Program-made: the position numbers and the translations under genes
NCBI GenBank assembly: GCA_004194705.1
Contig: SADC01000893.1
Location: forward strand, 46,060 to 110,059
Direction: 5' to 3'
Length of the DNA stretch: 64,000 bases
Origin: Ditylenchus dipsaci
Taxonomy: Eukaryota; Nematoda; Chromadorea; Rhabditida; Anguinidae
Shown here: positions 14,822 to 55,000 of the stretch, piece after piece
Numbering within the stretch: the first letter of the stretch is position 1
How the letters are laid out: the number at the start of each line of letters is the position of its first letter
Notes under the pieces: model-generated
What the model was told of the DNA's origin: nothing
The model's input: the letters and a program-made list of their open reading frames with translations, nothing else
The model's database searches: none

Positions 14822-16764
14822 TTACTTTGATTTCTTAACAACAGGCTCTTCACTTTTTTCAGGTTTCTTGCCAAGCAGTTCTTCCAGTTCACGCACTCTT
14901 TCTGAAGCTTTTTAATGGTCTCATCTTGTTGAACGAGCCTCTCATCTTGTTGAACGACTCTTGCTTCTAAATCACGGATCCTATCGACAAAAGGAAGACT
15001 CTAAAACACGATTGTAGAATTAGAAAAATACTTTTACTAGCTCGACAGACTAATTTTCAAAAAAATGAAGTGTTTAGAAACTGGTGGCTTGGAAAACTTT
15101 CATCGACTCAAATGCTTTGCACCTATGATATTTTTGATAAGAAATATTAACAAACTCTTGGTACGATCAGTCTTCGATGACGATGTAGCATGAAGTTGTA
15201 AGCCACTCTTGAAGATAGAGATATTTTCTTGTAATATGGATACTTCTTGTTACATGTAGCGTAGAAAATCGGAATAAAGTAGAGAATTTCAAAAAGTATT
15301 TCATGTGGTACAAGTAACAGAGTCATTCCAAATTTAATGGTTCTTTCAGGAAATACGACTTAGACAGTTTTGCCTGAAGAAACACTTCCCAGTCTAAGGT
15401 GTTAAAAAACTAAGAATTAAGACTTCGTAATTATGTCTTTATTTATATTTTATCGCATAAGATTCTTCTTAATTTAATAGTTGAGAAACAGCTCAAAACT
15501 TTAGCATAACTACTTCGAAGGATTATTGCATGACAAAGTCGTCCTACCGATTCCTTAGTCTAAATTCACCTTAGACTGAGACTATTTTGGCTATATGAAC
15601 ACCGTTAAGTTTTAGTCTTACTCTCAGTCCGTAATAGAGCCATTAAAATCGAGACTAATTGGTGCTTTGAAAATCCAGTCGAAAAAATATTTCTTTGCTA
15701 ACGCCAAGAAAGAGTTCGCACCAGTTTGAACGTTTTTAAGTAGCCTTTATTTGAGCTGATTAAAAAAGCTGAGGCCATATGCACAGTTAGAAAACGCCAG
15801 AATTTTATGAGGTTTTATCATAAAATTATTACGAGACGTCATGAAATTATGACGTTTTTGAACTGTGCATATGGCCTCTGTCAGAAAATTTGTGTGAAAA
15901 AATAGTCGAGAATTGTAGCACAAATGGCGATTAAGAACCGACCTGGAGTGGATTTTGGAAAGAGACGATAAACTCCCCGTCAAGAGCCCCACCAAAGGAA
16001 GGAATTCGGACAGCCTTTGCATTTTCGAAGTAGTAAGTGATAAACTTACTGTCGACCTTCCTTTCTTTGTAGATTCCGGTGATGAAGATCGACTTATGGA
16101 GAACAGCATTGGCCGACAAAAGCTTAAGAACACTGTCCAACAGGAAATAGTCTGCTACAAATCAAAGAGCTAAACATTTTTGAAGAATGTAGGGACACAA
16201 AATTTACCTCCAAGCAAAAAGTAGAGATTAGTTCCATCGAGGAACTGGTCTCCATCAAATATAAGCTCTTCTAGGTCAGATCTGCCCTTGACATTGAATC
16301 CCAATGAGCTCAACGCTTCGATCTCTTCCGCAAATTCAGTATGTGGCTCATGCCAGTGTTTTTCCGCATTCGGACAGAACCTTTCAATGACATTGAGCAG
16401 TATGGCCAGCTGATTCAGAGCTGCAAAAAAGCAAGTCATAAGTGATCTCTACCAAATTAGCAAAAAGGCATTCAATGGTGAAAATTACAAAAACATACAC
16501 TCTTCATACTGTATGTAGTCTTGAGGGTTATCCCCTTCTTCGGCGGGCCGCACAGTTCCGATTCCAAGAGCGATAACACTCTTAATTTTTCTTTCTCCTA
16601 ATACTTCGGACAAGGAACGCGTAAAATCATTTCTATAAACGTAAAAAATGAGCAGTAGATTACGAACTTTGTTAAGCTTACAAATCTCCATCATAAGCTT
16701 GGCTTACATTGACCTTTGCTTGAGTTATAGCATCAACAACTTTTCGCAGATCGTCAGCGTACAT
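14822..16764 (-). CDS. SRR1-like domain protein
   Basis: SRR1-like proteins are cytosolic/nuclear proteins linked to transcription and circadian output in plants and yeast; their biochemistry is unclear. Exons: 16764-16682, 16632-16499, 16420-16208, 16154-15943, 15000-14822. The product is about 273 residues, usual for the family. Family features: VIALGIGTV (matching the CYGLG-type strand); LNQLAILLNVIERF; a middle segment ending in FLDGTNLYFLLGG, the usual 'xxxPHC/G' position; then DYFLLDSVLKLL. The C-terminus is a short coiled coil with VVQQDERL repeated as LVQQDET and a basic KKSK end. The last exon needs one extra base in the five-T run at 14909-14913 (plus strand) to join its two halves. 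An acceptor ending at 16770 precedes the ATG by only five bases. Intron 4 (15942-15001) carries a palindrome. Confidence 0.8.
15770..15880. repeat. Inverted repeat in intron 4 of the SRR1-like gene
   Basis: Arms GAGGCCATATGCACAGTT and AACTGTGCATATGGCCTC enclose a second palindrome (ATAAAATTATTACGAGACG). About 110 bp in all; the rest of this intron (15004-15765) shows nothing recognisable. Confidence 0.6.
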
Positions 16765-16856
16765 CGAGACTAAAAACAAGTAAACATAAAAATAAGCTAC
16801 ATTATGGCAGCACATTAAATTTTTATTCTATTGAACATTTGAAAAACTTTATATCT

Positions 16857-52000: not shown

Positions 52001-55000
52001 TGACTTTTTGAGCAATATCTACTTGATCAATTACTCATTTTTCAGCGCTGATCTTATATCAAAAATGACGCCAAATAAAGGATAAAAATTTATGGTCACA
52101 TCCGAATGAGGAAGCAAAAATTAACTTTGAGTATTATTCGGGGAGATAATATGATTTGGTTCATGAAAAAGTTGAAACGTGCCGCGTAGCAGAAATCATC
52201 TTTTTCGTGGCTTACTTCAGCTTTTTCGTGAACTAAATCAGTATAAGCCTTATTTGTGGCGTGTTTTGGCTGATCAAGTCATGATTGGTTTCCAGAACTT
52301 GTGGAACTTCTTATTAGTCCAAAGACTCGCTTTAAAAAAAAAAGTCTATAAAAGTAAAAATTGGGGGAAGATAACTCGTAAGAATCAAAATAATTATGAG
52401 TGAAAGTCGAGGGAAAACGGGTGCTTTCAATGGGAGTCGAATCCAGGACCATTTTCACTGGCTTCCGCTGCTTTATCAATAAACAATCGAGACGATTTAA
52501 TCTTCGCGTTGTTAAAAATAATTTATTGCTGGAATGCAGCCTGATTAACCTCCTTACATTTCCTGAAAATTAAAAAAAACCATATTTTCAAATTTTAGAG
52601 AAGATTGCGAGTTCGAGATCATCTCCTGCAACCAAAAACAATGGGAATTCTCGGCATCCTCAGCTGAAGAGCGTGATGAATGGGTCAGTTTGATTGAGGA
52701 GCAGATTGAGAAGTGTATCCAGCTACAACCCAGTCAAAAACAACAGCAAAACAACCGAGCGCATGGCAACAAGGCTGAGGTCCAGGCACTTAGGGACATC
52801 AATGGCAACGACAAGTGTGCGGACTGCTCCACCCCCAAACCAGACTGGGCATCTCTCAACCTAGGCACTCTAATTTGCATAGAGTGTTCGGAATCCACCG
52901 AAATCTCGGCTCCCACATATCCAGAGTCCGATCCATTGACCTGGACGATTGGCCGTAAGTTCAATTTGGTGGTTTTCGGAGAGATTATTGATTTGTAAAA
53001 ATTATTTTTAGGGTGGAATACCTGCTGGTGATGCAAGCTATCGGAAATGACCTGGCCAACAGCATTTGGGAACACAACGCTCCAAATGGAAAACCCACTC
53101 CAGAGTCTTCAAGGTTTGCCTTTTTGATATTTTGGCTGTCTTCTTTTGCTCGGGCCTTAGGTATTTTCTCTGCTTTGTTCTTTTTTCCCCTCGCGACTGT
53201 AAAACGAGTAGCGTCAAAAAAATTTTGTTCTGAGAAACCCTCCAAATTCAGCGCCATAATTTTTTTAAATGCTCACTTACTGAGATATGTCTCAAAGTAG
53301 ATTTGTTAGAAATATAGTCGAGCACCAATCGGAGACATGCTCAACTTCGTTACTCCGCTGGGTCCAACACCTTTTTTTAATGATGGTTTTTCCGCGTCTG
53401 TTTGCCAGTTTAGTCCAATAAATTGTAAGGATTTTGATTTTGCCCATCCTTTTCATGAATAACAGCGGTTTTTGGGGGCAAGTCTCAATAAGCCGACAAA
53501 AAAGTGGTGTAGATTTATCGAGATTCGATTCTAACACAATCTGTCTCCAAATTTCGATTTTCCAATGTCAATTTTCCAACCCGATTCTTAATTTTTTCAA
53601 TGTCAGAGAACAAAAGGAGAACTGGATAAAGATAAAGTACGAGCAAAAGCTGTTTCTCCCTCCAGTGCCTGTGGACAGAACAATCAGTAGGCAGGTGATA
53701 GATGCTGTGCTGGGTCGAGACCTGCCTCGCTAATGCTTATTTTGCCCAGGTGTGAGGAAAAGGATGTCAATGGAATAATTGGAAATGGAGACAAGAGAAC
53801 TCCAATTCACTTGGCTTGTTCTATAGGTGCTGCTGAAGTGTTGCAGCTACTCATTTGGGTCAGTTTTTTTTTGATAATATTCTTTTGAGTCGACCTTATG
53901 AAGTATAAACAGTTTCGGTGTGCTAGAAAATTATTTGTAAAAATTGTGTGATAACTTTTTACTTGAAGCAATTTCGGAAAACGATTTTTGCATTTGATTA
54001 CTTTCGAGCCGCACAATATTTGACATAAAACGTTGAAAATATATATTTTTTTCGCTTATGCCTTATATTTGGGCGCTTGCCTATTTAGCGTTACTACTCA
54101 ATTGCGCAAATTTCGATCCAACTTTTTTGAGCTGAAGCTCGGATTATTAAGCTTAGGCCTCGCACACAATGGTGGGCCGTAAATTCGACAATCTTCACTC
54201 GGAAATGGCCATATGTTTTTTTCATTTTCTAGAAATTATTCATTTAGTGCTATTTTGTTGAGATTGAGGGCTACCAGATGAGCTAAAAATAAAGTTGTTG
54301 TGAATGAATAAATGTCGAAACAAAGTCAACATTGCTCACTCCGGCCGAGTGAGGATTGTCGACTTTTTCAACATTTTTCAATTCATACCTGCTCGACCAA
54401 TAGCCCATTTGGCAGCCCTGAACCTGAGCTACAAAATGGCAATAAAAGAATGATTTAAAAAAAAAGTTATGGCTATTTGCCGAGTGAGGATTGTTGAATT
54501 TACAGTCCACCATTGTGTGCGAGACCGTAGGCAAGGGTAGGCCAGCGTATGTTATAACAAAATTAGCGCAGTTGAGTTTTGCGCCAATGAGTAGTAACCC
54601 TATTTAAAGTCCCGAATTGTTCTGACCCGAACCACAGGAGCAAGAAGCGATGAACCAAGCACAAATAATATTTTTTAAAAGACGGCCGCTCGAGAGTAAT
54701 TGATTAAAATGACCGTTTTGAAAAATCGAATAAAAAAATTGGGAGTAATGGTGATTTTCGTAGAATTTCTTGGTCCATTCTGTAAGCCAAATCCTTATAA
54801 CCGGCCATCCTCTAAAATGCGAGCTTTGAATTTTTGAAGAAATCTCTAAAAAAAGTTGAAAATAAATTTAAAACTCTTTAAAACGATTTTCGCTCTAAAA
54901 AATTTATGCGAACCTTTTGGGCAAATTTCTGTATTCTGATTTTTGAATATTTTTTTCAAAACAGGTCTCAGTGTTCTACTCACAAATTTTCTGGAATCAG

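What the first reader, a model, noticed from the sequence alone, without database searches (positions are those of the whole stretch)
14822..53858. Thirteen frame breaks in conserved genes, every one a single missing base
In EMG1 (4), AGAP (7), the SRR1-like gene (1) and the HMG gene (1), the family-conserved protein continues only if exactly one base is restored, and nearly always by lengthening an existing run (AAA, GG, CC, CCC, AAAAA, CCCCC, TTTTT). No case needs a base removed. Exon phases and catalytic residues are otherwise intact. This is the deletion bias expected of an unpolished long-read consensus. True pseudogenes would show mixed indels and stops, and four neighbouring genes decaying this way is unlikely. 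The innexin and coiled-coil genes have none.
Basis: partly seen in the sequence, partly recalled or inferred. Interest (0 to 1): 0.75.

Follow-up and report, generated by a model that had tools for sequence, protein, structure and literature searches.

The report
Missing-base errors in a nematode assembly
The broken genes are very probably sound genes in which a draft genome of the stem nematode Ditylenchus dipsaci, built from noisy long reads, has dropped single bases, an ordinary assembly artefact that has also spoiled a public gene model.

Summary
The window is contig C889 of the Ditylenchus dipsaci E-105 draft (PacBio RSII, 42x, Canu; its paper names no polishing step). Against the closest relative all step the frame by -1, as one lost base does. 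The SRR1-like case was not put to a homology search. EMG1 and one tested AGAP stretch have no second copy in the genome.

The damage is genome-wide. Thirteen control gene copies (actins, CCT subunits, HSP60, PRP8) on 11 other contigs carry 20 counted breaks in 6,580 codons, all of that sign; ten of 13 copies are hit. One HSP60 gene lies twice on one contig. The copies differ by seven single-base gaps, all in homopolymers, one 30-base gap and four mismatches, and only one copy is broken. No slippery heptamer lies at 19 breaks scanned.

Public annotation has absorbed the errors: a UniProt D. dipsaci AGAP model matches the window exactly, but takes three odd introns at the breaks and lacks its ArfGAP and ankyrin parts.

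The parts
20287..23837 (+). EMG1/NEP1 (rRNA pseudouridine methyltransferase) gene; frame steps of -1 near 20318-20330, 21793, 21825 and 23668
   Evidence: 79% identical to D. destructor P0001; alignment; first step by eye; PF03587 found only on this contig
31617..55423 (+). AGAP (Arf-GAP with GTPase, PH and ankyrin repeats; centaurin gamma / CNT-2 type) gene; frame steps of -1 near 32672, 46812, 47643, 47714, 51394, 52888, 53728 and 55227
   Evidence: D. destructor P0121 over 999 codons; tblastn; a 401-base stretch (52560-52960) matched only itself in the genome
32682..32725 (+). 44-base intron of the public model A0A915CLV2 (placed by my aligner) next to the break at 32672; reads as an invented intron (ends AAG)
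   Evidence: P0121 aligns through it as one exon
46829..46872 (+). 44-base intron of the public model (placed by my aligner) next to the break at 46812; reads as invented (ends AAG)
   Evidence: P0121 aligns through it
47621..47714 (+). 94-base intron of the public model (placed by my aligner) spanning the breaks at 47643 and 47714; reads as invented (ends GAG)
   Evidence: P0121 aligns through it
49906..50257 (-). HMG-box gene inside a long AGAP intron; frame step of -1 near 50050; the public AGAP model ends on its antisense strand (49907-49981)
   Evidence: HMG_box_2 over cut-off when the two pieces are joined
   Evidence: by eye; two pieces without a Pfam match over cut-off
7610..8790 (-). 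innexin gene, no frame break seen over about 310 residues
   Evidence: by eye; PF00876 E 3.7e-69 on the joined exons

Best explanation
The genes are intact in the animal. The breaks are consensus errors of an assembly made from PacBio continuous long reads at 42x with Canu and, as far as its paper says, never polished. At some positions, homopolymers among them, the consensus dropped one base, which moves the reading frame by -1. Errors cluster by contig (this contig and the one with a fivefold-broken actin are bad, the PRP8 contig is good), perhaps following local read depth; that step is a guess. Gene prediction then bridged shifted frames with short introns or ended the model early, so errors passed into a public protein record. 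Shown here: the breaks, their sign, their spread, a sound and a broken copy of one gene, and the odd introns of one public model. Inferred: that the reads themselves carry the missing bases.
For: Assembly: contig C1198 is 3,685,767 bases, exactly the largest contig of D. dipsaci E-105 in PMC9984805 (passages); A0A915CLV2 of D. dipsaci matches the window at 574 of 574 aligned codons. Method: PacBio RSII 42x, Canu, Quickmerge, no polishing named (PMC6929663, whole text). Sign: 11 of 11 window aligner events are -1 modulo 3 and 20 of 20 counted control events are one base missing; on synthetic genes the aligner gave the right sign for 96 of 96 planted losses and 96 of 96 planted gains. Spread: 10 of 13 control gene copies on 11 contigs are broken, including actins, CCT subunits and PRP8. 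Copies: two HSP60 copies differ by 7 single-base gaps, all in runs of three or more, one 30-base gap and 4 mismatches in 3.2 kb, and only one copy is broken. EMG1 was found on no other contig. Completeness: 537 of 982 BUSCOs; in one re-annotation E-105 scored 49.7% against 64.7% and 62.4% for two assemblies of the species made from Nanopore reads and corrected with Pilon.
Against: No reads could be mapped here. Raw PacBio errors are mostly insertions (about 8% against 3% deletions, PMC7671305, passages), so a pure deletion pattern does not follow directly from the raw error profile. Homopolymer association at the aligner-placed events is modest. Rates differ widely: 1 break in 1,626 codons of PRP8, 5 in 357 of one actin, none in another actin or in one HSP60 copy; the window has three times the control rate (11 in 1,213 against 20 in 6,580 codons, p 0.005), though it was picked for its breaks, and no coverage data explain the spread. 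Steps of the other sign exist outside the counted rows: a one-base gain in the CCT1 fragment on C573 and, with a longer reference, a two-base loss in CCT1 on C1177.
Confidence: 0.97

Rival explanations
1. The genes are real pseudogenes, decayed by deletion.
For: EMG1, AGAP and HMG are all broken in the assembly.
Against: EMG1 is found on no other contig and its pieces remain 79% identical to D. destructor. The same breaks hit three of four actins, PRP8 and five of six CCT subunits, which cannot all be dead. No step of the other sign among the 31 counted aligner events.
Confidence: 0.01
2. The genome really lacks the bases and the frame is kept by -1 ribosomal frameshifting or by base insertion into the RNA.
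For: Every counted step is -1, the sense of a -1 slip, and it is genome-wide.
Against: No X XXY YYZ heptamer at or within five codons before 19 of 19 breaks scanned (background 70 of 4,294 codons). One actin would need five such events and another none. Two near-identical HSP60 copies differ at just these bases. Predicted D. destructor proteins run through the sites.
Confidence: 0.005
3. The breaks are true heterozygous indels of the pooled population, with the broken allele assembled by chance.
For: DNA came from about 7,500 pooled worms and the assembly is larger than the haploid genome (PMC6929663).
Against: Chance choice among alleles would not give one sign in 31 of 31 counted aligner events, nor several breaks in each of several conserved genes.
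Confidence: 0.01

Closest known systems
Frame-breaking indel errors of long-read assemblies (Watson and Warr 2019, as cited in PMC9985148, passages; PMC12007338, listing and start of abstract only)
   Same: Indel errors left in a long-read consensus harm gene annotation; polishing is the usual remedy.
   Different: Here the counted errors are all losses, and a sound and a broken copy of one gene stand in the same assembly.
Ditylenchus dipsaci E-105 draft genome (PMC6929663, whole text)
   Same: It is this assembly.
   Different: The paper reports the BUSCO counts and links the excess assembly size to heterozygosity; it does not mention missing-base frame breaks.

Membership tests
Unpolished long-read consensus error | Assembly made from noisy long reads with no named polishing | tested here: met
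Unpolished long-read consensus error | Breaks are spread over unrelated conserved genes of the same assembly | tested here: met
   10 of 13 control gene copies on 11 contigs, 20 counted breaks in 6,580 codons
Unpolished long-read consensus error | Single-base indels concentrated in homopolymers | tested here: inconclusive
   7 of 7 single-base gaps between the HSP60 copies are in runs of three or more; the 31 aligner events are only modestly enriched
Unpolished long-read consensus error | Accurate reads carry the missing bases | not testable with these tools
   no reads available
Pseudogene | Mixed indels and loss of constraint | tested here: not met
   one sign in 31 of 31 counted events; protein identity kept on both sides of the breaks
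Programmed -1 frameshifting | Slippery heptamer at the site | tested here: not met
   0 of 19

The most novel reading that the evidence does not exclude
D. dipsaci truly lacks these bases in its DNA and restores frame genome-wide by -1 slippage or by inserting bases into RNA, which would be the first such system in an animal nucleus (that it would be the first is recalled, not searched).
Probability: 0.004. Interest if true: 0.95.

Novelty: not a real feature. Interest (0 to 1): 0.12.

Why it matters
It is an artefact, but one with consequences: in the E-105 assembly of a major crop pest the conserved control genes are broken at about one site per kilobase of coding sequence, and the window's genes at about three, and one public protein record carries introns that probably do not exist and lacks its ArfGAP part. 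Apparent gene losses, fast-evolving linkers or very short introns reported from this assembly should be checked against corrected assemblies first.

Tried and rejected
Programmed -1 frameshifting: no slippery heptamer at 19 of 19 breaks scanned. Pseudogenes: rejected on copy number, constraint and spread. An allelic copy of the window as control: a 401-base AGAP stretch matched only itself. A second CCT1 copy on C573 was aligned but left out of the count: it is a partial 93% copy that may be a decayed duplicate; it has 5 one-base losses, one two-base gain and one one-base gain in 240 codons, and 14 single-base gaps against the C1177 copy, 10 of them with C573 shorter. With a longer, partly recalled reference the C1177 CCT1 showed one more one-base loss and one two-base loss (a step of the other sign) that are not in the count. 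Loci fetched but not aligned: L040, L041 and L044 (further CCT genes or copies). Other actin places listed were not fetched. Most CCT subunits were covered only in the segments printed by the PDB search. Homopolymer counts of the window alone were not informative. Raw and corrected PacBio error statistics neither prove nor exclude a deletion-only consensus. In print: searches listed no paper that names this assembly as unpolished (one search found none with the words;'s 802 papers 25 were listed); a search on introns invented at assembly frame errors listed eight of 75 papers, none holding the phrase 'spurious introns'.

Full report
What was checked. The finding says that EMG1, AGAP, an SRR1-like gene and an HMG gene in 14.8-53.9 kb carry 13 frame breaks, each one missing base, and reads this as the mark of an unpolished long-read assembly. 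I tested the breaks with protein relatives and a frameshift- and intron-aware aligner written for the purpose, then looked for the same pattern in control genes elsewhere in the genome.

Where the window comes from. It is the last 64 kb of contig C889 (110,059 bases) of a genome of 226,978,389 bases in 1,359 contigs. That is close to the D. dipsaci E-105 draft (227,234,012 bases, 1,394 scaffolds; PMC6929663, whole text); 35 contigs fewer are held here. Contig C1198 is 3,685,767 bases, exactly the largest contig given for E-105 in PMC9984805 (passages). The nearest EMG1 relative listed is Ditylenchus destructor at 79%, and a D. dipsaci record, A0A915CLV2 (P0123), matches the window at 574 of 574 aligned codons of its 584 residues. 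The draft was made from PacBio RSII reads at 42x, two Canu assemblies merged with Quickmerge (one with minimum correction coverage 0); its methods name no polishing, and 537 of 982 BUSCOs were complete.

The breaks. EMG1: three steps by alignment to the D. destructor protein and one near the start, outside the aligned part, by eye. AGAP: eight steps over 999 codons against D. destructor P0121, seven called as one base missing and one (47643) as two extra, the same step modulo 3. Against the more distant P0122 there are also eight events: five at or within three bases of the same places as one base missing, 47643 as one base missing, 51400 as two extra, and 46831, in a poorly conserved linker, as one extra. 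HMG: one step, by eye; the joined pieces score over the HMG_box_2 cut-off. SRR1-like: two pieces gave no Pfam match over cut-off, no homologue search was made, and its frame change was seen by eye only. Innexin: no break seen. The aligner shows no sign bias: on synthetic genes 96 of 96 losses and 96 of 96 gains were called with the right sign, and nothing in 24 intact ones.

The breaks are genome-wide. Control rows cover 13 gene copies on 11 contigs: two HSP60 copies (C1304), PRP8 (C1329), actins (C1198, C1251, C1286, C104), and CCT epsilon (C1030), gamma (C1105), alpha (C1177), delta and beta (C1271) and zeta (C882), some CCT genes in part, 6,580 codons in all. They hold 20 events, all one base missing (two-sided p 2e-6 for a fair coin). 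Ten of 13 copies are hit; one HSP60 copy, the C1251 actin and the covered 260 codons of CCT zeta are not. The rate runs from none in 542 codons (HSP60) and one in 1,626 (PRP8) to five in 357 (actin on C104). The window, with 11 aligner events in 1,213 codons, has three times the control rate (p 0.005), but it was chosen for its breaks. Outside these rows two steps of the other sign were seen: a one-base gain in a CCT1 fragment on C573 and a two-base loss in CCT1 on C1177 when a longer, partly recalled reference was used.

A gene with a sound and a broken copy. On C1304 an HSP60 gene lies twice, inverted. Over a 3,232-column alignment the copies differ by seven single-base gaps, one 30-base gap and four mismatches near one end. 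All seven single-base gaps are in homopolymers of three or more; L042 is shorter in six, L043 in one. L043 aligns over 542 codons without a break; L042 has two breaks, at two of the gaps. Such an excess of one-base length differences over substitutions is what consensus error gives.

Homopolymers. At the 31 aligner events, a run of three or more lies within four bases in 14 (background 31.6%, p 0.08), and a run of four or more in 7 (background 6.8%, p 0.004). The aligner's placement is uncertain by a few bases, which dilutes the signal.

What it did to annotation. Placed on the window by my aligner, the public AGAP model has 15 introns. Three of them (44, 44 and 94 bases) lie at the breaks at 32.67, 46.81 and 47.64-47.71 kb and end in AAG, AAG and GAG, while 11 of the other 12 end in CAG; P0121 aligns through all three as protein. 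The twelfth jumps to the antisense strand of the HMG gene, where the model ends. The model keeps part of the Ras and PH matches and has no ArfGAP or ankyrin match, which D. destructor's protein has.

Rivals. Decay, -1 frameshifting, RNA insertion and allelic indels are each opposed by the single sign, the spread over conserved genes, the copy comparison, or the lack of slippery sites (0 of 19). The aligner itself penalises stops and asks for GT or GC..AG introns, so their absence or presence is not used as evidence. What is missing is the reads themselves. Raw PacBio reads are insertion-rich (PMC7671305, passages and one section), so the one-sided loss is a property of this consensus as measured here; that such a consensus tends to lose bases is recalled, not shown by a call.

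Verdict.

Noticed in passing
G000:C1304, about 208.0-211.2 kb and 220.6-223.8 kb (L042, L043): An HSP60 gene duplicated as an inverted 3.2-kb copy, near-identical apart from homopolymer lengths; recent duplication or assembly fold.
   Followed up: partly
G000:C573, about 1.9-3.0 kb (L046): Partial copy of CCT1, 93% identical to the C1177 gene, with many single-base losses.
   Followed up: partly
49906-50257 minus: HMG-box gene lies antisense inside a long AGAP intron.
   Followed up: partly
20797-21041 and 22764-23056: Inverted repeats of 84 and 110 bases per arm in EMG1 introns, like small transposable elements.
   Followed up: no
31617-49981: UniProt A0A915CLV2 is a truncated AGAP model with three odd introns at the breaks.
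   Followed up: yes
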